This document shows positions 603 to 14,104 of a stretch of DNA of 22,039 nucleotides, one piece after another. The stretch is taken from IMG/VR virus record IMGVR_UViG_3300042691_018495, positions 1-22,039 of that record; one strand, given 5' to 3'. Made by a program: the position numbers and the translations under genes. The stretch's first letter is position 1. Every line of letters starts with the position of its first letter. The notes under the pieces are model-generated. The model saw only the letters and a program-made list of their open reading frames with translations, had not been told where the DNA came from and made no database searches. The DNA comes from a virus.

Positions 603-646
603 GATTGCTAGTGAGTCACTTCGCTGAGTGATTGTCACTAGCAATC
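603..646. repeat. Perfect 12-bp inverted repeat with nested inner stem
   Basis: GATTGCTAGTGA at 603-614 is the exact reverse complement of TCACTAGCAATC at 635-646. Inside, TCACT (616-620) pairs with AGTGA (627-631) around the loop TCGCTG, giving a long two-stage hairpin. It lies 28 bases upstream of the start codon of the leftward gene at 396-575. No T tract follows in either direction, so an operator or leader structure fits at least as well as a terminator. Confidence 0.7.
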
Positions 647-1459
647 ACAGAAAACACATAGTGGAATTACTAAGTATGAATAACTCACCTTGTCATTACT
701 GTCATTGTTCTTATTTCAGATTGGTTACTGACGGCACTAACTATTGTTAGCAATCCATAAGTAATGAGTAATTGAGTTGTTCAACTTTCCATAACTCTCT
801 TCTAAGCCAAACGCTATTCACAATTAGTTTCGTAATCGTTAGGTCGTTACACCGAATGTGCGTGAGTCAATGTTTGCTCATTGTTTTTATTACAAGCCGT
901 TAGTAATAGGAATAAGCACTATTAGTAATTCGGTTTTTCTTGTAAGAACTCACACAGTAATCGCGTTCTTCTTAGCCTCTATTTAATAAAACGCAATCTA
1001 ATCTTTCGTCACTCTGTTTTGGTTATCAACCGCGAACCGAAGTTCTATTAACAGATACACCGCAGTTTTTATTTGCGTTTAGCCTTTTTCACTCTGCTAC
1101 TCATGAATCCGAATTAACTTGAAATCACTCGACAGGTGCTACTTTTTCAAGTTTCTTCGTATTCAGTTTTGGCGCGTGCGCTAGGCCAATTATGCCATAC
1201 CTGACCGACTCAGTTCGCCACCCCTGTTATGAGCGTGTTTTACGCATAAATAGCCCCAAGACCCCTAGTAACTCGCGCTTCTCGCCACCCCCGTCACGAA
1301 AGTCAGTTAGTGCGTGAGCGTGCGCCCCCACATAACTAATCGCGCCAAGATGTTTTTCTTTTCAGTAATGACTAATACAAAGAATGTAATAGATACATAG
1401 ATACATAAACAAGATAATAGATAAAGACAATTACAAATAAAGAAGTTTGTAATAGCCAC

Positions 1460-1514
1460 ATAACTAAGTAACTTTCGCTGTCGTATGTGTAAATCTGTGT
1501 ATAACTAAGTAACT
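1460..1514. repeat. Direct repeat, two 14-bp copies of ATAACTAAGTAACT
   Basis: ATAACTAAGTAACT occurs at 1460-1473 and again exactly at 1501-1514, a period of 41 bases. The flanks differ, so this is not part of a longer duplication. Related strings (AAGTTACTTACT near 1530, AGTAACTATC near 1565) continue to the right. The spacing is close to four helical turns, as expected for iterated protein-binding sites; that function is inference. Confidence 0.65.
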
Positions 1515-1694
1515 CATCTGGCGGAATCCCAAGTTACTTACTATTACCTGAAGAGAATCCGGAGAAGTAACTATCCCGATTAACTTGCTGCCACTTAATT
1601 AGTTAGTCATTACAAGGAGAATAACTCAGTTAGTCATAGTAACTATTTACCGGAGTTTCATAGTTAGTTGATTAGTTTGATAGTTGAAACAACT

Positions 1695-1718
1695 CATAAC
1701 TAATACACATAACTAATA
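1695..1718. repeat. Tandem CATAACTAATA copies
   Basis: CATAACTAATA is found at 1695-1705 and 1708-1718, separated by two bases. A third, one base shorter, copy CATAACTAAT is at 1331-1340. The unit belongs to the TAACTA-rich tract of the hub. Confidence 0.6.
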
Positions 1719-1725
1719 ACGGATT

Positions 1726-1753
1726 GCGTTACTAATAACGCGAAGCGTTACTA
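1726..1753. repeat. GCGTTA hairpin with duplicated arm
   Basis: GCGTTA (1726-1731), the four-base loop CTAA, and TAACGC (1736-1741) form a perfect inverted repeat. The left arm recurs as part of GCGTTACTA at 1745-1753, so TAACGC could pair with either side. Confidence 0.55.
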
Positions 1754-1773
1754 CCTAACTATGTGATAACAAC

Positions 1774-1843
1774 TAGCCGAAGTGGTAGGTGGCTTGGTAG
1801 TGGTCGCACGAACAATTAACAAACAAAGACAGTAGCCGAAGTG
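1774..1843. repeat. Direct repeat TAGCCGAAGTG, two copies
   Basis: The 11-mer TAGCCGAAGTG occurs at 1774-1784 and 1833-1843. The second copy sits in ACAGTAGCCGAAG, which shares CAGTAGCC with the GGCAGTAGCC elements found further right. Confidence 0.55.
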
Positions 1844-1904
1844 TTGTCACCAAAGTTGTCATCAAATAATTATTCACACCTGATAACAAAGCACGAGTTG
1901 AACA

Positions 1905-1935
1905 ATTACCACCTGATTAGTAGTCAGGTGGTGAT
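1905..1935. repeat. Inverted repeat ACCACCTGA / TCAGGTGGT
   Basis: ACCACCTGA (1908-1916) and TCAGGTGGT (1924-1932) are perfect reverse complements around the loop TTAGTAG, and the stem extends three more pairs to 1905-1935 with one G-T wobble. No T tract follows. It lies about 110 bases before the first rightward gene, where an operator would be expected. Confidence 0.6.
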
Positions 1936-2000
1936 GTGACTAGCGCATGACCCCCCCACCATTAAGTCAAAAAGCCCAATAGAACAGCCAGGTGAGAAAC

Positions 2001-2030
2001 ATGGTTGAGGGGTTTGAGCCAAGGCAGTAG
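2001..2030 (+). other. Possible nine-codon leader ORF before the ParB-like gene
   Basis: ATG at 2001 follows AGGTGAG by four bases and reads MVEGFEPRQ, ending at an amber TAG at 2028-2030 inside the GGCAGTAGCC element. It is in the same frame as the ParB-like gene at 2046, which has no clear ribosome site of its own. Termination and re-initiation is one reading; chance is the other. Confidence 0.25.
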
Positions 2031-2032
2031 CC
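2023..2032 (+). promoter_or_regulatory. GGCAGTAGCC start-associated element, copy 1
   Basis: The imperfect palindrome GGC-AGTA-GCC lies 13 bases before the ATG at 2046. The same ten bases occur at 3429-3438 and at 5176-5185, the latter 14 bases before the ATG at 5200. All three sit at module boundaries. Cluster K mycobacteriophages have comparable start-associated sequences, a different motif; that parallel is inference. Confidence 0.5.
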
Positions 2033-2045
2033 AAAAGATGGCAGA

Positions 2046-2321
2046 ATGGCCCACATGCCTAGTTTGTCTGCTGCCCAGTTCGCCAAGAAGTTCGCCCCAT
2101 CAGAGTACGGTGAGTCTTGGGATGAGGTAGGCCAGCATGAGGAGTTTCATCGCCCTGTAGAGGGCGCTCTCAGTCATGAAGAGATGGTCAAGAGCGTTAA
2201 AGCCCGTGGAATTGATGTCCCAGTAATAGTCCAGGGCAAGCATGTCATTGATGGACATCATAGAGCACTAGCCGCTATGGAGGCTAATGTGCGGATTCCT
2301 TACGATAGGGCGCCAGAGTAA
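2046..2321 (+). CDS. ParB/sulfiredoxin-like domain protein (91 aa)
   Basis: The 91-residue product carries a compact ParB-N-like signature near residues 55-80: a VPVIVQGKH strand and turn followed by VIDGHHRALAAMEAN (G70, H71, H72, R73). In ParB and sulfiredoxin-fold proteins the G-x-H-R part binds phosphate or nucleotide. The family's C-terminal helix-turn-helix is absent, so this is a stand-alone domain of the kind often found in phages and in polyvalent proteins. The N terminus has PSLSAAQF (residues 5-12), matching the L-S-x-x-Q-F motif of proteins encoded at 5200-7330. The ATG at 2046 has no clear Shine-Dalgarno; ATG at 2055 is an alternative start. Activity cannot be read; nucleotide binding, CTPase or nuclease action are all possible. 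Confidence 0.75.
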   Translation: MAHMPSLSAAQFAKKFAPSEYGESWDEVGQHEEFHRPVEGALSHEEMVKSVKARGIDVPVIVQGKHVIDGHHRALAAMEANVRIPYDRAPE

Positions 2322-2337
2322 CCTGTATATTGGTCAC

Positions 2338-2535
2338 ATGGACCAAGAAGACGCATGGGCAGAGGCCGTAGCACGCAAGCACATGAGGCGAAGTGGCATC
2401 AGAAGGCTCTACGTCTACCCAAATGGCCTCAGAAAGGCTCCTGGGTACCTAGAATTGGAGTTTGTGGTCTGGGGTCACGTCTTTTTTCGCCTGAGATTAT
2501 GGAAAATACGTCCTTTTCTCAGTAATGATGATTAG
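2338..2535 (+). CDS. Small hypothetical protein (65 aa)
   Basis: A frame from ATG at 2338 to TAG at 2533-2535 encodes a product starting MDQEDAWAEAVARKHM. The first half is an acidic then basic amphipathic stretch; the second half is hydrophobic and basic (ELEFVVWGHVFFRLRLW). I recognise no family. There is no good ribosome site; a longer start at 2287 would overlap the ParB-like gene by 35 bases and is less likely. It may be real, since it fills the space between the ParB-like gene and the RNA-like region without other competition, but support is limited. Confidence 0.45.
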   Translation: MDQEDAWAEAVARKHMRRSGIRRLYVYPNGLRKAPGYLELEFVVWGHVFFRLRLWKIRPFLSNDD

Positions 2536-2735
2536 TGTGTTAGGATAACTGCAGGGCCTAACAGGAATTCGACCTCTCGTTAGGTACAACTGCCCCGAAA
2601 ATTACGCTGGTGCTCTCATTGGACAACCTGTGTCGAACAGACCCAAGAAGAAAGCATCTAGGGAACAGAGCCAGTGGTTGATTCTGCCGTCGAAACGGCC
2701 TCCGCGACTGGCACCACTTATTTTTTTTTTTTTTT
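2536..2735 (+). ncRNA. Candidate structured RNA or leader ending in a T15 terminator
   Basis: This 200-base gene-free stretch is full of complementary segments. CCTAAC (2557-2562) can pair with GTTAGG at 2539-2544 or with GTTAGG at 2579-2584, two mutually exclusive hairpins. Further right, GCCGT (2686-2690) and ACGGC (2695-2699) close a CGAA tetraloop. Around it either GCCAGT/ACTGGC (2670-2675 with 2707-2712) or AGTGGT/ACCACT (2673-2678 with 2713-2718) can form. The second stem ends two bases before fifteen consecutive T residues (2721-2735), the classic layout of an intrinsic terminator. A riboswitch-like attenuator for the downstream zinc-ribbon genes or a free small RNA would both fit. No known RNA family is recognised. 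Confidence 0.5.
2670..2735 (+). terminator. Intrinsic terminator with fifteen T residues
   Basis: A GC-rich nested hairpin (GCCGT-CGAA-ACGGC within AGTGGT/ACCACT) is followed after TA by T15 at 2721-2735. This is by far the longest homopolymer in the window. The next gene starts only 22 bases later, at 2758, so complete termination would require a separate downstream promoter or regulated read-through. Confidence 0.65.
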
Positions 2736-2757
2736 CAATAACAACTAGGCGGGTCAC

Positions 2758-2886
2758 ATGTCAAAGGTAGGAACTAAGGGCTATTGTAGCGATTGTGGCA
2801 ACTGGGCAACAGACTGCAAGACGATTATCGTGTATTCAATCCCAGAAAAGGTCTGCCAAGATTGTCGGGAAGAGAGAAATGCCTAA
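2758..2886 (+). CDS. Small zinc-ribbon protein (42 aa)
   Basis: The 42-residue product starts MSKVGTKGYCSDCGNWATDC. It has C-x2-C at C10 and C13, a further C20, and a second C-x2-C at C33 and C36, so it should fold as a zinc ribbon. There are 22 bases between the T15 tract and the ATG; no strong Shine-Dalgarno is visible apart from a weak GGCGGG. The last eight bases overlap the start of the FmdB-like gene at 2879, so the two should be coupled. Function is unknown; tiny zinc ribbons of this type are common phage accessory proteins. Confidence 0.65.
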   Translation: MSKVGTKGYCSDCGNWATDCKTIIVYSIPEKVCQDCREERNA

Positions 2887-3049
2887 TTACGACTATCTCT
2901 GTTCTCTCTGTAACAGCGTTCAGGAGATTTATAGAACATTCGATGAGGCCAAAACTCCTCCTGTCTGCTGTAACCATGATATGAAGCGTATCTATACGCC
3001 CAATGGAGTTATTTTTAAAGGTGGCGGCTTCTACAAGACTGGAGGATAG
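2879..3049 (+). CDS. FmdB-like zinc-ribbon protein (56 aa)
   Basis: The product starts MPNYDYLCSLCNSVQEIYR and ends IFKGGGFYKTGG, both typical of the FmdB/CxxC_CxxC_SSSS putative regulatory family (N-terminal M-P-x-Y-x-Y-x-C-x2-C; C-terminal F-K-G-x-G-F-Y-x-T). The second metal pair is degenerate: the family's C-P-x-C is replaced by C30, C31 and H33. The ATG at 2879 follows GGGAAGAGAGA and lies inside the preceding gene, indicating coupling; the FmdB-like reading decides this start over upstream in-frame codons. FmdB-type proteins are presumed transcriptional or assembly regulators; the role in a phage is unknown. Confidence 0.8.
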   Translation: MPNYDYLCSLCNSVQEIYRTFDEAKTPPVCCNHDMKRIYTPNGVIFKGGGFYKTGG

Positions 3050-3053
3050 GCAG

Positions 3054-3407
3054 ATGTCAGAAAGTCAACGACCATGGGGCAACTATGAGGTGCTACAGGA
3101 CGACCCTAGCCACAAGGTTAAATGTATTTATGTGCTACCAGGCAAGCGCCTGTCATATCAGACACATAAATTTCGTGCCGAACACTGGTTCATCGTCTCT
3201 GGTGATGCCGAAGTGACTCTTGATGGTCGTACATTTACCGTCTCATCAGGAAACGCCGTAACCATTCCTGTCGGAGTTGCTCATCGTATTGCAAATATTG
3301 GCGATAGACGACTCTGCTTTATTGAAGTCCAGACTGGTACCTACTTTGGAGAAGATGACATCGTAAGACTCGATGACGATTTTGGACGTACCTCCCCTAG
3401 TTCATAA
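3054..3407 (+). CDS. Cupin protein, C-terminal domain type of mannose-6-phosphate isomerase / GDP-mannose pyrophosphorylase
   Basis: The 117-residue product is a single cupin resembling the isomerase domain of type II mannose-6-phosphate isomerases. It begins with RPWGNYEVL (residues 6-14), has PGKRLSYQTHKFRAEHW (29-45) carrying metal-ligand candidates H38, E43 and H44, then IPVGVAHRIAN, and ends with EVQTG and EDDIVRLDDDFGR. Family members interconvert fructose-6-phosphate and mannose-6-phosphate for GDP-mannose synthesis. The guanylyltransferase half is missing, as in many phage and bacterial stand-alone copies. The ATG at 3054 follows GGAGG by 8 bases, so longer starts are rejected. The 3' end lies in a 50-bp element repeated at 5136-5185. 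A role in sugar metabolism, perhaps with the carbamoyltransferase next door, is inference. Confidence 0.85.
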   Translation: MSESQRPWGNYEVLQDDPSHKVKCIYVLPGKRLSYQTHKFRAEHWFIVSGDAEVTLDGRTFTVSSGNAVTIPVGVAHRIANIGDRRLCFIEVQTGTYFGEDDIVRLDDDFGRTSPSS

Positions 3408-3438
3408 GATTTTGCGCTTAAAAGTTTAGGCAGTAGCC
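3389..3438 (+). repeat. 50-bp direct repeat, copy A (left of the carbamoyltransferase)
   Basis: This copy aligns without gaps to 5136-5185 at 38 of 50 positions. The first ten (TACCTCCCCT) and last ten (GGCAGTAGCC) bases are identical, and ATAAGATTT is nearly conserved. It contains the last codons and stop of the cupin gene (ACC TCC CCT AGT TCA TAA). The other copy has the matching frame ACC TCC CCT AAG AAA TAA, as if it carried the remnant 3' end of a related gene. Confidence 0.7.
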
Positions 3439-3467
3439 AAAACGTTTACACCTGCTGTTAGGTTTAC

Positions 3468-5072
3468 CTACTTTACAAAGACTTCTCCGTTAAGAACCAA
3501 GATGTCTACTAGAGGATTATTTCTAAAGAAGGTCATTACATTTTGAGATGACTCAACGATAGGTTCTCCAGGTCCATTCAGACTAGTGTTTAATAGCAGT
3601 GGTATGCCTGTAAGTTCTTTGTATTCTTTTAACAGGTTATACATGTGAAGATTGCTATCTTCAGTGACCGTCTGCATACGTGCCGTGTTATCTACGTGAG
3701 TAACAGCAGGTATAAGTTCAGGCTTCTTCACTGTTGCAGTAAAGAGCATGAAGGGACTTGGACCTTCCCAGTCAAACCATTCAGAGCAATGCTCCTCCAT
3801 GACTACAGGAGCAAATGGCCTAAACCATTCACGTTTCTTTATTAAGAAATTTATAACCTCCCGCGTGTGATACTGCCGTGGGTCTGCTAGGAGGCTTCTG
3901 TTACAGAGCGCACGAGGACCAAACTCAGACTTGCCCATGAACCAGGCAACTATCTTGCCATTGGCAATCTCTTTAGCAAGGCGCTTATAGTCAGGCGTCT
4001 TATCGGTGTAGGACCTGCCTAAATAGGCAATGTCTTGAGGCTTATACGTCTGTCTTGGAAAGTCTAGAATGTGATGGGCAACATATAGGGCGGCTCCGAC
4101 AGCATTACCGTCGTCTGTACAGCCGGGAAATAGGTGCAGGTTGTTAAATCGTGTCTCTTTCTTTATTCTAGAGTTTACATTACAGTTTAAGAACGAGCCT
4201 CCTGCTAAAACTAGGTTGTCTACACCATTCTTCTCAATACTGGAATTGATTACATGCAGAATTGCTTCTTCGAATAGATACTGGACATTTGAGGCAGCCT
4301 GTAACTCCACAGACGTTAGGTTATTTGCTGCATTCAGAACAGCGCTTGTGCCGGAAAGTCTTTCCCACAATTCGTGCTCTACAAGAGAGTAGTCATAATA
4401 ATCTGCATCTAAATCAAAAATAGTTTTAGCAATGAGTTCTTTTATGTTTTTTACAACTGACTCAGAAGGCGGTAAGTATGAAGCCATGCCCATTAAAGAG
4501 CCAGCCTTAAAGTTTGCCTCCCCAATTCCGCTCAAGTAACAAGCGCTGGAGTAAAGATGTCCAACCATAAGGCCTGGACAAGATACTGCAGTAAGTTTGT
4601 TCCCTTCCCCGTAAGCAATTAAACTGTTTGAACGAATATTGCCACCACTTGCATCCATAGTAAAAGCCCAAGACTTGTCAAAAGAACTTGTATAGAACGC
4701 AGATGCAGCATGGGCTAGATGATGAGGAAGAATGTAGGCATCCATCTTTTTGCCTAAAATTGACGCTTCGGCTTTCTTTACATCGTTAAAGAAATAACTC
4801 TGGTCTCTTTTGCGAACGAGTTCTCCATCTACATACAGTTTAAACTTTGTATCAAAAACAAGGTCTTGGTCATAGTCAGCAAACGTGACAATATCGATAT
4901 CTTCTATGGTCAGCCCGTTTTCAGAAAGAACATAATCAACAAGTTCAGCGCTTAATATTCGGTGTTTTTTTACCCTACTTAATCTTTCAGAGGTCAACGC
5001 TGTTACTAATCTGCCATCTTTTACCAGAGCAATGGAAGCGTCGTGCCCTACGTGTACACCCAATATGTTCAT
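3468..5072 (-). CDS. Carbamoyltransferase, NodU/CmcH/TobZ family (534 aa)
   Basis: The 534-residue product is a full-length O-carbamoyltransferase. The Kae1-like N-terminal domain has HHLAHAASAFY with the metal pair H117-x3-H121, then MDASGG near 139-144, GSLMGMASY (191-199), LAGGSFLNCNVNS (289-301) and PGCTDDGNAVGAAL. The YrdC-like C-terminal part has GKSEFGPRALCNRS (380-393), REWFRPFAPVV (414-424) and LLNTSLN (493-499). Family members transfer carbamoyl from carbamoyl phosphate through carbamoyl-adenylate to a hydroxyl of a sugar or antibiotic; some phage homologues are proposed to act on hydroxymethylated bases. The acceptor here is unknown. C390 replaces the usual Gly of F-G-P-R-A-L-G-N. 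The gene runs against its neighbours, has a strong AGGAGGAAG site 5 bases from the ATG, its own candidate promoter, and direct repeats on both sides, all typical of a moron. Confidence 0.93.
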   Translation of the reverse strand: MNILGVHVGHDASIALVKDGRLVTALTSERLSRVKKHRILSAELVDYVLSENGLTIEDIDIVTFADYDQDLVFDTKFKLYVDGELVRKRDQSYFFNDVKKAEASILGKKMDAYILPHHLAHAASAFYTSSFDKSWAFTMDASGGNIRSNSLIAYGEGNKLTAVSCPGLMVGHLYSSACYLSGIGEANFKAGSLMGMASYLPPSESVVKNIKELIAKTIFDLDADYYDYSLVEHELWERLSGTSAVLNAANNLTSVELQAASNVQYLFEEAILHVINSSIEKNGVDNLVLAGGSFLNCNVNSRIKKETRFNNLHLFPGCTDDGNAVGAALYVAHHILDFPRQTYKPQDIAYLGRSYTDKTPDYKRLAKEIANGKIVAWFMGKSEFGPRALCNRSLLADPRQYHTREVINFLIKKREWFRPFAPVVMEEHCSEWFDWEGPSPFMLFTATVKKPELIPAVTHVDNTARMQTVTEDSNLHMYNLLKEYKELTGIPLLLNTSLNGPGEPIVESSQNVMTFFRNNPLVDILVLNGEVFVK

Positions 5073-5092
5073 TTCTTCCTCCTGTTTTCCTT

Positions 5093-5123
5093 ATCCTAGC
5101 AGGAAAGGGCTTTTAATGGTCAA
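5093..5123 (-). promoter_or_regulatory. Candidate promoter of the carbamoyltransferase gene
   Basis: On the reverse strand TTGACC (bases 5118-5123) and TAGGAT (5093-5098) are separated by 19 bases, near the sigma70-type -35 and -10 consensus though the spacer is long. Transcription would begin near 5086, a few bases before the AGGAGG ribosome site. This would give the leftward gene independent expression. Confidence 0.4.
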
Positions 5124-5135
5124 ATCATGAGGTCC

Positions 5136-5185
5136 TACCTCCCCTAAGAAATAAGATTTCACGCTAACTTTTTGAGGCAGTAGCC
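5136..5185 (+). repeat. 50-bp direct repeat, copy B (right of the carbamoyltransferase)
   Basis: This is the second copy of the element at 3389-3438, with 38 of 50 bases matching and both ends identical over ten bases. Here GGCAGTAGCC is flanked to make the perfect palindrome GAGGC-AGTA-GCCTC (5174-5187 region). It ends 14 bases before the ATG at 5200, which lacks a clear Shine-Dalgarno, so the element may contribute a start-associated or promoter function. Confidence 0.7.
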
Positions 5186-5199
5186 TCATACTTAGCGGT

Positions 5200-5382
5200 A
5201 TGGCTGCGGTAGTAAAAAAGAACCCACAACAGAAGTTCCACCAAGAGCGCATGCATCGCGCTATCTCTGGGGAACAGTTTTACTTCCGCAAAGAGATGCC
5301 CAAATCAATGTATGTAAATGTCGCCATGCAGATGATGCCACCATCAGGCGCAAGTAATACAGCATCGAGTACCAAGGCATGA
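5200..5382 (+). CDS. Small basic protein carrying an I-S-G-x-Q-F motif (60 aa)
   Basis: The 60-residue product starts MAAVVKKNPQQKF, is Lys, Gln and Met rich, and contains AISGEQF at residues 21-27, the same kind of string as the L-S-x-x-Q-F motif of proteins encoded downstream. The rest (MPKSMYVNVAMQMMPPSG) is not recognisable. The ATG at 5200 lies 14 bases after the GGCAGTAGCC element and no good ribosome site is visible. Its TGA stop overlaps the next ATG (ATGA at 5379), so it heads the coupled run ending at 7512. It could be a packaged internal protein or an adaptor; this is a guess. Confidence 0.6.
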   Translation: MAAVVKKNPQQKFHQERMHRAISGEQFYFRKEMPKSMYVNVAMQMMPPSGASNTASSTKA

Positions 5383-5912
5383 GAACAGACGAACACGGCG
5401 GCGACCTGCCCACAACTCGTATGGAGAACGGTGGAACCGTTACTGCATACCCAGGTCGTGCCTGCCCACACTGCCCTGCCGCCTTCTATAAACCAGAAAG
5501 CCAACAGAGCCACATCATCGAGAAGCATCCTGGTCAGCCCTATAACCATTCGGTAGAAGATGACAAGCATCGTATTGATTATTTCCACTGGTTCACACCA
5601 CAGCATCCTCACTTCTTTGTATTAAGTGACAAGAAGAGCGGGCAATATCTTTCTAACATGACTCTCGATAGAGAGGGCAAAGTATCTGGTGTAGAAACCC
5701 ATCCTAAACATCAGCGCCAAGGACTTGCTACAAAACTCTGGGACTATGCAAAGTCTCAATCTGCTATGGGAATCCCTGAACCGAAGCATTCTGGCACCAG
5801 AACTAAAGAGGGTGAGGCATGGGCCAAGAAGATTGGTGGCGAGTTGCCACCTCGTGGTCGACTACTGAGTGCTCGTCAGATGCAGGGCATGATTGACTTT
5901 GGGAGGGATTAA
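5379..5912 (+). CDS. C2H2 zinc finger fused to a GNAT acetyltransferase-like domain (177 aa)
   Basis: Residues 29-50 form a C2H2 finger, C29-x2-C32-x12-H45-x4-H50. A GNAT-like domain follows: beta strands around FVLSDKKSGQYLSNM and VSGVETHPKHQRQGLATKLWDYA, where Q112-R113-Q114-G115-L116-A117 is the acetyl-CoA pyrophosphate loop (family Q/R-x-x-G-x-G/A). GNATs acetylate amines of small molecules or proteins. The stretch PKHSGTRTKEGEAWAKKIGG near 135-154 recurs in the next protein, so the two are paralogues. The C terminus contains LLSARQM (162-168), a variant of the shared L-S-x-x-Q-F motif placed at the opposite end. Both gene ends overlap their neighbours. The target is unknown; a host protein is inferred from context. 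Confidence 0.8.
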   Translation: MRTDEHGGDLPTTRMENGGTVTAYPGRACPHCPAAFYKPESQQSHIIEKHPGQPYNHSVEDDKHRIDYFHWFTPQHPHFFVLSDKKSGQYLSNMTLDREGKVSGVETHPKHQRQGLATKLWDYAKSQSAMGIPEPKHSGTRTKEGEAWAKKIGGELPPRGRLLSARQMQGMIDFGRD

Positions 5913-6310
5913 TGAAGCAGACTCCTAGACCATCCGACCCGAATAAGCCAAGAAACCTATCGGGCGTTCAGTTCCGCTATAGCGCTCCGCAAAAGGATGG
6001 CTTTAGATGGCATGAACTTCAAGCGATTGCGCCAGAGGTAAAGAATCGCAATAGTCAAACAGGAAAGGGCCTCGTCGTGGGAACGCTTCAATGGCATCCT
6101 CAGACTGGTGATGTCAATTGGGTGCGCACACATCAAGATTATCGAGGTCTAGGTGTCGCAACAACGATGTGGGAAAAGGCACATAAGTTATCTGCCGATA
6201 CTGGGATAAAGGCACCCAAGCACTCTAAGCACAGAACAGAAGAGGGCGAAGCCTGGGCAAAACAAGTTGGAGGCGAGATGCCACAACGTTCACCTTACGA
6301 GTTGCCATGA
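5912..6310 (+). CDS. GNAT-family acetyltransferase-like protein (132 aa)
   Basis: The 132-residue product starts MKQTPRPSDPNKPRNLSGVQF; residues 15-21 (NLSGVQF) match the shared motif. The GNAT core is VVGTLQWHPQTGDVNWVRTH followed by D-Y-R-G-L-G-V-A-T (76-84), the acetyl-CoA loop with the canonical R-G-x-G-x-A. The C terminus repeats the PKHS-x2-RT-x-EGEAWAK-x2-GGE block of the preceding protein but lacks its zinc finger, so one gene probably arose from the other by duplication. ATG at 5912 overlaps the previous TAA by one base and follows GGGAGG. Likely cytoplasmic in the host after expression or delivery; substrate unknown. Confidence 0.85.
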   Translation: MKQTPRPSDPNKPRNLSGVQFRYSAPQKDGFRWHELQAIAPEVKNRNSQTGKGLVVGTLQWHPQTGDVNWVRTHQDYRGLGVATTMWEKAHKLSADTGIKAPKHSKHRTEEGEAWAKQVGGEMPQRSPYELP

Positions 6311-6606
6311 GTAATCTATCTAATCAGCAATTCGATACCTACTACCATCGCACAGACCCAGAGAGCGCTGGTCACATTGCAAAGACTGGAAAGTTAAAGG
6401 CCTCTCACTATGAGAACATGGTCTTCGTGTCTAATAAAGAGCACGGCGGCGCAAAGCCATTCGGGCGGTCTGTCGTGGAAGTTCAAGTGCCAAAGAAGGC
6501 TTCGGGTGTTGATGTCTCATCGAATCCAGAAGTTCATGACGATGAAGTCTGGTGGGGGTTCGCGCCCAAGGATGTCAAAGTGACAAGGGCGTGGTCTGAA
6601 CTATGA
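6307..6606 (+). CDS. ADP-ribosyltransferase-like protein, H-R-T type (99 aa)
   Basis: After the N-terminal tag MSNLSNQQF (1-9) the sequence reads YYHRTDPESAGHIAKTGKL (12-30) and then NMVFVSN (37-43). This is the layout of the first half of many small ADP-ribosyltransferase folds (Y-H-R/G-T, then A-x2-I-x3-G, then a V-F-V-S strand). VVEVQVPK and the final WWGFAPKDVKVTRAW resemble the later strands. Such enzymes move ADP-ribose from NAD+ to proteins or nucleic acids; T4 Alt, ModA and ModB are phage precedents acting on host RNA polymerase and ribosomal proteins. No clear catalytic Glu can be assigned, so activity is uncertain. The first 19 bases nearly match those of the next gene (17 of 19). 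Confidence 0.65.
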   Translation: MSNLSNQQFDTYYHRTDPESAGHIAKTGKLKASHYENMVFVSNKEHGGAKPFGRSVVEVQVPKKASGVDVSSNPEVHDDEVWWGFAPKDVKVTRAWSEL

Positions 6607-6947
6607 GCAATCTATCTAACGAACTATTTTTTGAGGCACATCGTGGCGTAGGTCAACCACTAGAGAAGCCGTTGGGTCGCCACTGGTCTGCTCAATACTC
6701 TACTGCTGGTGACTTCGCCTTCTGGAATCATGAAAAGGGCATCGTAGTAAGTGCAAAGATTCCAATGTCATCTGTTGAAACACATACCGAGACATTGAAA
6801 GATTTAGAAGTAGGCGGTAAGTATGCGGCAGAGAAAGAGATTCCAGTAAAACCTGGTGCACCTGTTTATGTAACTCGAACTATACGAGAGACAGACAAGC
6901 GCTTCCGTACTCGTAAATACAATCCACCACGGGAGATGAGAGCATGA
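6603..6947 (+). CDS. ADP-ribosyltransferase-like protein, H-R-G type (114 aa)
   Basis: The N terminus is MSNLSNELF, nearly the same tag as the preceding protein, running into FEAHRGVG (10-17). GRHWSAQYSTAGDFAFW (25-41) follows, then IVVSAKIPMSSVETHTETL. R-G at the first strand, a G-R-x-W-S strand and a following A-x2-F-A helix are the outline of R-S-E type ADP-ribosyltransferases. The C terminus (TRTIRETDKRFRTRKYNPPREMRA) is basic. The ATG overlaps the upstream TGA by four bases. The tag may shade into the first beta strand, so L-F here is weaker evidence for a shared motif. Substrate unknown; a host protein target is inferred from context. Confidence 0.65.
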   Translation: MSNLSNELFFEAHRGVGQPLEKPLGRHWSAQYSTAGDFAFWNHEKGIVVSAKIPMSSVETHTETLKDLEVGGKYAAEKEIPVKPGAPVYVTRTIRETDKRFRTRKYNPPREMRA

Positions 6948-7330
6948 GCGCACCACTATCAGGCTCGTTATTTCACGGCACTATTGAAACTCTTAAACCA
7001 GGAGACCTTATCAAGCCTCGTTACAGTGGCGCTAAAGCCTGGGCAACTCCATCTTTTGAAGATGCAGAGAAGCACGCTAAAGACCGCATTTCTTCTGGCT
7101 TAGGTTTTGAATCTGAAGGCAAGCATCCACATCACGGCAATATCTACGAAGTAGAGCCTGTTGCTCCTAATCTTCACTCTGATGCATCAAGTCAAGACTT
7201 TCCTGGGGCACGTTCTAGCAATGTAGGTTTTGTTGTAAAGAATCACGTAGCCTCTGTGTTGAATCCATACATTGAAGCACGTTCAGGTCGTGACCCTTAT
7301 ACCAACAGTGCTTACCACAGAGGCATCTAA
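6944..7330 (+). CDS. Arr-like ADP-ribosyltransferase (rifampin ADP-ribosyltransferase family) (128 aa)
   Basis: The product starts MSAPLSGSLFHGTIETLKPGDLI. Residues 10-23 match the opening of Arr enzymes (F/Y-H-G-T, then L-K-x-G-D-L-I), with H11 in the position of the family's NAD-contacting His. A-T-P-S-F-E-D-A (34-41) follows, then GNIYEVEPV (65-73), the family's I-Y-x-V-E-P strand, and a S-x2-F-P-G-A-x-S-S-N segment resembling the Arr C terminus. W33 stands where Arr enzymes usually have an aromatic Tyr. The size, 128 residues, is close to the roughly 140 of Arr. Known Arr proteins inactivate rifamycins; in a phage effector cluster another target, for example RNA polymerase or nucleic acid, is equally plausible. 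The N-terminal PLSGSLF fits the shared motif. Confidence 0.75.
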   Translation: MSAPLSGSLFHGTIETLKPGDLIKPRYSGAKAWATPSFEDAEKHAKDRISSGLGFESEGKHPHHGNIYEVEPVAPNLHSDASSQDFPGARSSNVGFVVKNHVASVLNPYIEARSGRDPYTNSAYHRGI

Positions 7331-11590: not shown

Positions 11591-14104
11591 TTGAAACTAC
11601 TGCGTTCATCCGCAGCACAATCTGGTTTCTTTAGTCGAGTTTCATTTCTTTTAGGTGCAAGTTTTATTTACTTGCTTTTAACTGTCACGCCATCATATGC
11701 TGATGAGACAACTACAGTTACAATGTCTCCTACTCCTAGTGAGAGTCCTTCCACATCAACTTCGAGTTCACCCGCTCCAAGTCCGACTCAAGAGCCAGTA
11801 TCCGAGCCTTCGCCCACTTTAACTCCTCAGTCAACTTCCGATTCCTCTGCTCCCACTGCAGAATCCTCTCCATCTTCTGAGCCGAGTTCATCTCCAGAAC
11901 CCGTTGTAGAACCTTCACCTTCTTCTTCAACGGAGTCGACCCCTGAACCCACCCCACAACCATCCCCAACAGAAAACCCAACACCGACAACAACATCCAC
12001 TGATACTCCACCTGCTGTTACCTCCCAACCTGAACCTGAACCAGTTGTTACTGAAACAGTAACTGCTGGTGGTGATGACGTGTCTTATAGAATTCCGTTA
12101 ACTACAGCAGTTGTGTTCAACGGAGTTACATATACGGACGTGTATGCTACTACGAATTCTGTAATTACCTTTGGTCAGCCTGATGGAACTTATTGGACAT
12201 ATCCAAACACTCCCTCTATCTCTGTTGAATCTCGTGACTGGTGGGCTTTGCCTAACCAAATGCCAGACACACATTTCATCATCAGAACTAGTGATGGAGG
12301 ATTTCAAGTAGACGGCTCTTATCGTCCATTTGGAAGTATGAGTGGTGACACCACACAGATTGTTATTACTGGACAAATTCAAACTGATGGAACTGTTTCC
12401 TACACCTACACAGTTGATGGGCCTCTATCTGGAGGCGAAAGGACTGGAGCCAGATTACAAGATGGCTCTATAGTTACTCTTGAACAAGCAGGAGTTACTG
12501 AAGTAGAAGAACCTGTTGAACTTGCGCCTACTCCCGTTGAGCCGACTCCTGAACCCGAACCTGCTCCAGAACCAACTCCTACACCAACACCAGAGCCTGA
12601 ACCTACCCCTACACCGACACCTGAACCAGAGCCAACCCCAACTCCAGAACCTACTCCTCAACCTGAGCCAACTCCCGAACCTTCGCCCTCTCCAGAACCT
12701 GAGCCCACTCCGACTCCCACACCCACACCAGAACCCACACCAGAACCAACCCCAGAACCACAGCCAGAACCAACCCCGACACCATCCCCCGAACCAACAC
12801 CGACTCCTGAACCAACTCCCACACCCAGCCCAGAGCCGCAGCCGCAGCCAGAGCCCACACCAACGCCTTCACCAGAACCTACTCCTCAGCCTCAACCTCA
12901 GCCGACTCCAGAGCCTGAGCCAACTCCCGAACCGCAACCAGAGCCAACGCCACAGCCGCAGCCAGAACCGACACCACAGCCAGAACCACAACCCGAACCT
13001 TCACCTGAACCAACTCCTAATCCCGAACCACAACCTGAACCACAACCAGAACCTACTCCTCCTGCTCCTGAGCCCACGGTTCCAGAACCTCAACCTGAGC
13101 CTCAACCTCAACCAGAGCCCGTTGTACCGCAGCCTCAACCAGAGCCTGAGCCTCCTGTGACGGTAACTCCTGAACCTCCCGTAGAACCTGAACCACCTGC
13201 AGAAGAGAATCCTGAAGAACCTTCTGAAGAGGAAACACAAAATCCGGAAGAGGACTCAGAGGATAACTCTGAAGGTGACACTCCCGAAGACACTCAAGAC
13301 GACTCAGAGAATCCTCAAGACACTCCTGAATCTTCCGATAATCCGTCAGAAGATACGGATTCATCTACTGACCCAGATACAGAGCCAGAGCCGACCCCCA
13401 CAGAAGAAGAGTCAGAACCCACATCGCCCGAAGAAACTGACGAAAACGAAGACTCTGAGGACGTACCCCCTTCTGAAGAATCAGAAGAGCCAGAACAAGA
13501 CAACCAAGAGCAAGAAAATCAGTCTGAAGAATCACAAGATACTCCTATCGTTGAACCAAGTGACCCAGAGCCTACACCAGAAGCAGTCATCTCGGATGCA
13601 CTTGCTGATGGCAAATTAACAGAAGAAGAGAAGGCTGCTGTTGTCACAGCAATTGTTTCTGACCTTGCTCCAGGTGAGGCTGTATCTACAGAGACACTTA
13701 TAGAGGCTGGAATTACGTTTGAAGACTTGCCACCAGAAACACCTGTCGATGTTAGAACAGATGAAAATGGTAATGCAGTTATCATTACTGCAGAAGTCGC
13801 AGCCGCTCTTACACTTATCGAGAATCCTTCAGAATTAATTGGCGCCCTATTTGAAGACCCAGGTCAAGTTCTTCTTGCATTGGGAAGTATTGGTGCAGAT
13901 ATGTCAGAAGAAGAACGTGAAGAAGCAACAAAGATGGTTGTAGCAACTGTAGTCGCTGCAGGTGCTGCTATCAATGCAGCAACAGCAGCCGCTGCTGCCG
14001 CTGCTGCCGCAGCAACAACCACTGGAGGGAGTTCAACAGGAGGCAACTCAGGTGGCGGAGCGCCAACCGGAGATGCAAAAGCCGTTAGGAGACGACGTAA
14101 ATGA
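11591..14104 (+). CDS. Large secreted Pro/Glu-rod protein (837 aa, TTG start)
   Basis: The 837-residue product has a Sec signal peptide (basic start, hydrophobic core at residues 17-32, likely cleavage after A37 in TPSYA). A Ser/Thr/Pro-rich stretch (40-155) leads to one globular beta-rich domain (about 161-303) with [22 protein letters not shown], resembling the start of NIDO-like extracellular domains. Then comes a rod of about 230 residues dominated by E-P, T-P and Q-P repeats (311-545), an acidic Glu/Asp/Ser tract (545-655), a helical region (665-780), a long Ala-rich hydrophobic segment, a Gly/Ser linker and a basic tail VRRRRK. It is exported and probably wall-spanning or membrane-anchored on the host. 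No LPxTG motif is seen in the correct position. A host-surface or superinfection-related role is inferred; a virion fibre is the alternative. Confidence 0.85.
12525..13225 (+). repeat. Degenerate Pro/Glu/Thr codon repeat tract inside the secreted protein
   Basis: Within the gene at 11591-14104 this tract repeats hexamer to nonamer units of CCA/CCT/CCC, GAA/GAG and ACA/ACT/ACC codons without exact periodicity. It encodes the E-P-T-P rod. Open frames on the opposite strand and in the +1 frame across this tract are artefacts of the repeats. Confidence 0.85.

What the first reader, a model, noticed from the sequence alone, without database searches (positions are those of the whole stretch)
3389..5185. 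Carbamoyltransferase moron bracketed by 50-bp direct repeats
The only leftward gene in the rightward block lies between two 50-base copies (3389-3438 and 5136-5185) that match at 38 of 50 positions without gaps and are identical over both outer ten bases. Copy A includes the last codons of the cupin gene, and copy B preserves the same final frame (T-S-P then two residues and TAA). The gene also has its own promoter-like boxes and strong ribosome site. This is the footprint expected for a cassette gained, or able to be lost, by recombination between repeats.
Basis: seen in the sequence. Interest (0 to 1): 0.7.

Follow-up and report, generated by a model that had tools for sequence, protein, structure and literature searches.

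The report
Moron between two shared phage elements
A carbamoyltransferase gene in an uncultured, probably actinobacterial phage sits between two 50-base repeats, and these are copies of a control-like element found in dozens of related phages, usually once per genome, at places where accessory genes appear to have been swapped.

Summary
The repeats are real: 3389-3438 and 5136-5185 match at 38/50, with both outer 11 bases identical, flanking an apparently intact leftward carbamoyltransferase (3468-5072). They are not private to the gene. The same element, TACCTCCCCTA-n3-AATA(AGA)TTT-n15-AGGCAGTAGCC, with near-fixed spacing, occurs in about 35 IMG/VR phage contigs, usually once per contig, in the accessory island of this lineage. 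An ATG commonly follows 13-14 nt downstream, and unrelated genes abut it. I read it as a promoter or start-associated regulatory element; that function is inferred. Copy B matches one relative's element at 49/50 with unrelated DNA on both sides, so DNA has been exchanged at the element's edges. Copy A supplies the cupin's stop codon. But A and B share no identical run over 11 nt, B is far closer to other phages' elements than to A, and the gene's homologues elsewhere lack the element. So the repeats are not the insertion's footprint and are poor excision substrates. Best reading: a moron captured at a shared module-joining regulatory element, working like PeSLs of T4-type phages.

The parts
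3389..3438 (+). Class II element, copy A (TACCTCCCCTA...AGGCAGTAGCC). It supplies the last five codons and stop of the cupin ORF and has no usable ATG within 60 nt downstream, so it is an orphan copy that runs into the 3' end of the carbamoyltransferase.
3468..5072 (-). Nol/TobZ/NovN/GdmN-type O-carbamoyltransferase, 534 aa, both Pfam domains complete
5077..5083 (-). Shine-Dalgarno AGGAGGA of the carbamoyltransferase
   Evidence: sequence
5136..5185 (+). Class II element, copy B; ATG of the 60-aa ORF follows after 14 nt, as in many relatives
3054..3407 (+). Cupin (phosphomannose-isomerase C-terminal type), 117 aa. Its native end DDFGR[A/S]* (as in L109 and G012) is replaced by FGRTSPSS* read from copy A.
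5200..5382 (+). 60-aa ORF downstream of copy B; homologue 87% identical in G030, where two other genes lie between it and the element
1983..2032 (+). Class I element (CAGCCAGGTGAGAnACATGGTTGAGG...AGGCAGTAGCC) ahead of the first rightward gene; shares only the 3' core GGCAGTAGCC with class II

Best explanation
The 50-base repeats are two copies of a conserved regulatory element of this phage lineage, most likely a promoter plus start-associated leader that drives rightward accessory-gene modules, and the carbamoyltransferase is a moron caught between two such elements. Shown: the element occurs in about 35 viral contigs, nearly always once per contig, in one orientation, with a rigid 40-nt spacing between its two conserved boxes, often with ATG 13-14 nt downstream, and with unrelated genes or a tRNA abutting it. 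Shown: the close relatives that cover the locus have one copy and lack the gene. Shown: copy B and the element of relative G030 are identical at 49 of 50 bases while both 150-nt flanks are unrelated, so DNA on both sides has been exchanged since they shared an ancestor. Shown: copy A is fused to the cupin's 3' end and replaces its stop codon. Inferred: modules are joined at element edges by phage recombination that uses the element as short homology. Inferred: the window's locus is a composite in which copy A belonged to a left arm (zinc-ribbon, accessory gene, element, as in G032) and copy B to a right arm (element, 60-aa ORF, GNAT, as in G028 and G030), with the carbamoyltransferase brought in between them on its own ribosome site. 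Inferred from its family: the enzyme transfers a carbamoyl group to a sugar hydroxyl, perhaps on a host surface glycan.
For: Element spread, spacing and context. Island synteny, gene absence and kinship. Copy B 49/50 to G030 with flank z-scores -0.5 and 0.0, against about 79-84% identity in the syntenic backbone. Cupin native ends in L109 and G012. tRNA-Gln ends one base before the element in G017 (L237). No conserved RNA fold beyond 3 invariant base pairs, which points to a DNA-level site. Enzyme family.
Against: No transcription or binding data exist. The conserved boxes are not a standard sigma-70 promoter. No relative has the exact cupin-element-60-aa-ORF junction that a clean A x B deletion would give. 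One equally close relative (G003) ends just before the locus. A second element in one genome is not unique to this gene (G024 has two, around other ORFs), so bracketing could be incidental.
Confidence: 0.7

Rival explanations
1. One reading: a cassette (element + gene) inserted at a resident single element by recombination between repeats, and able to leave by A x B recombination.
For: Relatives without the gene have a single element; the gene with its own ribosome site fits tightly between the two copies (29 and 63 nt of extra DNA).
Against: A and B are only 38/50 identical with no identical run above 11 nt; neither is the other's closest match; homologues of the gene in 80 other viral loci have no element.
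Confidence: 0.15
2. The bracketing is coincidental: the region is hypervariable, holds one to a few regulatory elements at many gene junctions, and an independently acquired gene happened to land between two.
For: G024 has two elements around several other ORFs and G020 has a degenerate second copy. A different carbamoyltransferase, about 25% identical, lies in the same island of G006 without elements.
Against: Only two class II sites exist in the 22-kb window and they flank exactly this gene. A leftward gene also follows the element directly in L109/L110/G020.
Confidence: 0.25
3. The repeats are attL/attR-like sites of a site-specific recombinase, with the single element of relatives as the empty site.
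For: Single site in empty loci and two in the occupied one.
Against: No recombinase gene in 3439-5135. The copies diverge throughout the middle and have no shared core beyond the boxes conserved in all phages. Copy B matches an empty-site element over its whole length instead of being a hybrid.
Confidence: 0.03
4. The conserved 50-mer is a protein-coding C-terminal tag (T-S-P-x-x) and not a regulatory DNA site.
For: Several unrelated proteins end in TSPxx* at the element (cupin, ferredoxin in G032, ORFs in G020 and L253).
Against: In 11 of 27 distinct sites a stop codon lies immediately before the element. After a tRNA in G017 there is no protein. In G011 the stop is lost and the frame runs on.
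Confidence: 0.02

Closest known systems
PeSLs (promoter early stem-loops) of T4-type phages, Arbiol et al. 2010 and Comeau et al. 2014, seen here only as cited in PMC4503421 and PMC3950731
   Same: Conserved regulatory motif at gene junctions in a hypervariable region, proposed to mediate shuffling of gene modules.
   Different: Here there are one or two copies per genome, a rigid 50-nt bipartite site, and only a 3-bp invariant palindrome (GGC-AGTA-GCC) with no stem-loop supported by covariation.
Start-associated sequences (SAS/ESAS) of cluster K mycobacteriophages (PMC3203893)
   Same: Short, oriented, non-palindromic motif with symmetric ends (GGG...CCC there, GGC...GCC here) just upstream of start codons, sometimes with a longer conserved part upstream, in non-structural genes of different families.
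   Different: Unrelated sequence; 11-19 copies per genome and 3-7 nt from the start there, against 1-3 copies and typically 13-14 nt here; no ribosome-binding core here.
Nol-like carbamoyltransferase phage morons (PHROG 1601; cyanophages, Pelagibacter phage HTVC008M)
   Same: Same family and full-length domain architecture.
   Different: Only about 33% identical to isolate-phage proteins; the nearest IMG/VR homologues are 46-48% identical and are not flanked by the element.

Membership tests
Phage moron (independent accessory gene) | Present in one phage, absent from close relatives at the same place | tested here: met
   Absent from G023, G028, G030 and G032, terminase 95-97% identical
Phage moron (independent accessory gene) | Own promoter and terminator | tested here: inconclusive
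   Good ribosome site; promoter only by eye with a 19-nt spacer; the scan found no promoter and no terminator at its ends
Nol/TobZ O-carbamoyltransferase | Complete Carbam_trans_N and Carbam_trans_C domains with the conserved HHxxHA, GG-N and GPRAL-RS motifs | tested here: met
Cassette inserted by recombination between its flanking repeats | Single repeat copy in relatives lacking the gene | tested here: met
Cassette inserted by recombination between its flanking repeats | The two copies are each other's closest match or near-identical | tested here: not met
   A-B 38/50, B-G030 49/50, A-G032 40/50
PeSL-like mobile regulatory cassette | Conserved motif at junctions between swapped gene modules | tested here: met
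   (regulatory role inferred, not tested)
PeSL-like mobile regulatory cassette | Promoter plus stem-loop | tested here: not met
   No consensus fold beyond 3 invariant pairs and no covariation; promoter activity not testable here
SAS/ESAS of cluster K phages | Consensus GGGATAGGAGCCC within 3-7 nt of the start codon | tested here: not met
   Core here is GGCAGTAGCC, typically 13-14 nt from ATG

The most novel reading that the evidence does not exclude
A previously undescribed pair of lineage-specific phage elements (class I and class II, sharing the core GGCAGTAGCC) acts both as the control signal of accessory-gene modules and as the homology at which these modules are exchanged. The class II element also often provides a ready stop codon (T-S-P-x-x-stop) for a gene joined upstream, so arriving genes, with a reversed carbamoyltransferase between two copies, are fitted without breaking their neighbours.
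Probability: 0.35. Interest if true: 0.6.

Novelty: new variant of a known kind. Interest (0 to 1): 0.45.

Why it matters
How phages splice in and drop accessory genes without breaking their operons is an old question. Here a short shared element marks the joints in an abundant uncultured phage lineage (hundreds of contig stretches carry related terminases), so joints can be found by a simple pattern search and exchange tested across metagenomes. It also warns that direct repeats around a moron need not be its insertion scar.

Tried and rejected
Target-site duplication or recent tandem duplication: rejected because A and B are more different from each other than B is from other phages' elements. 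Coding C-terminal tag: rejected (G011 and G017 cases). RNA hairpin: no covariation beyond 3 invariant pairs. Known RNA family: the four Rfam matches in the window are all far below their gathering scores and none lies at the elements. Single-subunit phage RNA polymerase as the user of the element: no hit in 12 contigs, but the control genomes gave none either, so uninformative. The element in Streptomyces phage BRock: neither full box found in the 41.5 kb around its terminase. Close relatives of the gene by single-sequence scans of IMG/VR and GTDB genomes: none; an alignment query found homologues at 46-48% full-length identity at best. The exact-pattern scan gave one likely chance hit (L247), which was left out. 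One family search failed on wrong coordinates and was repeated in Pfam.

Full report
What is there. The window is a 22,039-bp virus record. Its large terminase is about 52% identical to Streptomyces phage BRock and 84-97% identical to the best 80 of at least 598 related IMG/VR stretches. Rightward genes start at 2046 after a roughly 1.4-kb region without long ORFs. Two 50-base copies, A (3389-3438) and B (5136-5185), match at 38 positions, with identical 11-base ends. Shuffling never produces the pattern. A weight matrix trained only on other phages finds exactly these two sites in the window, at 65.3 and 58.4 bits against 4.5 for the best random site.

The gene between them. The leftward 534-aa ORF at 3468-5072 has complete carbamoyltransferase N- and C-terminal domains and matches the Nol-like phage family PHROG 1601 and the solved enzymes NovN, GdmN and TobZ, with the conserved HHLAHA, GG-FLN and GPRAL-RS motifs. 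It has a good ribosome site, but the consensus scan does not support a promoter. No close homologue exists in IMG/VR or GTDB by single-sequence scans. Isolate phages are at about 33%. An alignment query reaches IMG/VR contigs at 46-48%. One of these, L276, carries distant homologues of other window genes, so it may be a distant member of the same clan with the gene in another place. None of the 80 loci holds the element.

The repeats are a lineage-wide element. The same bipartite site, TACCTCCCCTA then AATAAGATTT or AATATTTTTTT then AGGCAGTAGCC, occurs in many related contigs. A scan of 2.9 million viral contigs with both boxes returned 36 records with one exact match each, one of them probably chance. 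Most copies are exactly 50 nt long. An ATG follows 13-14 nt after the element in 11 of 24 distinct sites that have a usable ATG within 60 nt. The upstream neighbour varies freely: a stop codon lies directly against the element in 11 of 27 sites, a tRNA-Gln ends one base before it in G017, and other genes read into it and end in TSPxx (cupin here, ferredoxin in G032). The core GGCAGTAGCC also ends a second, class I element in front of the first rightward gene (window 1983-2032). In 2 Mb of loci the core occurs 32 times against once for its reversed control. There is no RNA fold beyond three invariant pairs. The rigid spacing and lack of structure point to a DNA-level signal. That it is a promoter or start-associated element is inference.

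Comparison with relatives. G023 (L166), G028 (L172), G030 (L174) and G032 (L176) have terminases 95-97% identical to the window's and cover the island; none has the carbamoyltransferase and each has one class II element. The equally close G003 ends at about window position 5,860, so it cannot tell. The island content differs each time: sulfotransferase, ferredoxin and an APS-kinase-like gene in G032, small GNAT and other ORFs in the rest. G006 has a different carbamoyltransferase (about 25% identical), also leftward, in the same island but without elements. L109, L110 and G020 have a leftward 236-aa gene directly after the element. G024 has two elements of different subtype around several ORFs.

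Exchange at the edges. Copy B equals the G030 element at 49 of 50 bases, while the 150 bases on either side are at background similarity (z -0.5 and 0.0), although the syntenic backbone is about 79-84% identical. The middle of the element is not generally conserved, so this block is best read as shared by descent with both flanks replaced. Copy A has cost the cupin its native end: homologues end DDFGRA or DDFGRS (L109, G012), here it runs FGRTSPSS* into the element. These are direct signs of joining at element edges. But A and B are not a matched pair, have no identical run above 11 nt, and homologues of the gene travel without the element. The simple model of a cassette that entered and can leave by A x B recombination is therefore weak.

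Verdict. The gene is a moron in an accessory island, and the repeats are resident, conserved, probably regulatory elements that serve as joints between exchanged modules. The working principle resembles PeSLs of T4-type phages (cited in PMC4503421 and PMC3950731; originals not held), and the position resembles start-associated sequences of cluster K mycobacteriophages (PMC3203893). It is not a member of either by sequence.

Noticed in passing
window 2046-7330 and L228-L244: Many otherwise unrelated small proteins of the island begin with a similar N-terminal motif, roughly M-x(1-6)-L-[SG]-x2-[QL]-[FW] (MSNLSNQQF, MSNLSNELF, MSAPLSGSLF, MSASDNLSKQLF), ahead of GNAT-like or other domains; it could be a shared targeting or virion-packaging tag.
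   Followed up: no
window 640-2040: About 1.4 kb without long ORFs between leftward and rightward genes, AT-rich and conserved in relatives (70-89% in blocks); no tRNA, and no Rfam match there.
   Followed up: partly
window 1826-1860: A third context of the core, (A)GACAGTAGCC followed by a conserved stretch with GTTGTCACCAAAGTTGTCATCAAA, with similar copies in G030, G014 and L175.
   Followed up: no
L232 7430-9173 (G032): At the corresponding element a relative carries a sulfotransferase, a ferredoxin and an APS-kinase-like gene, a possible sulfation cassette.
   Followed up: partly
L228 2324-3856 (G006): A different carbamoyltransferase (511 aa, about 25% identical), also leftward, in the same island without class II elements: an independent acquisition of the same function.
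   Followed up: partly
window 11591-14104: 837-aa protein with a long Pro-Glu-Thr repeat stretch and an acidic part; strong GC skew.
   Followed up: no
window 5379-6310: Two GNAT-like genes in tandem directly downstream of the 60-aa ORF.
   Followed up: no
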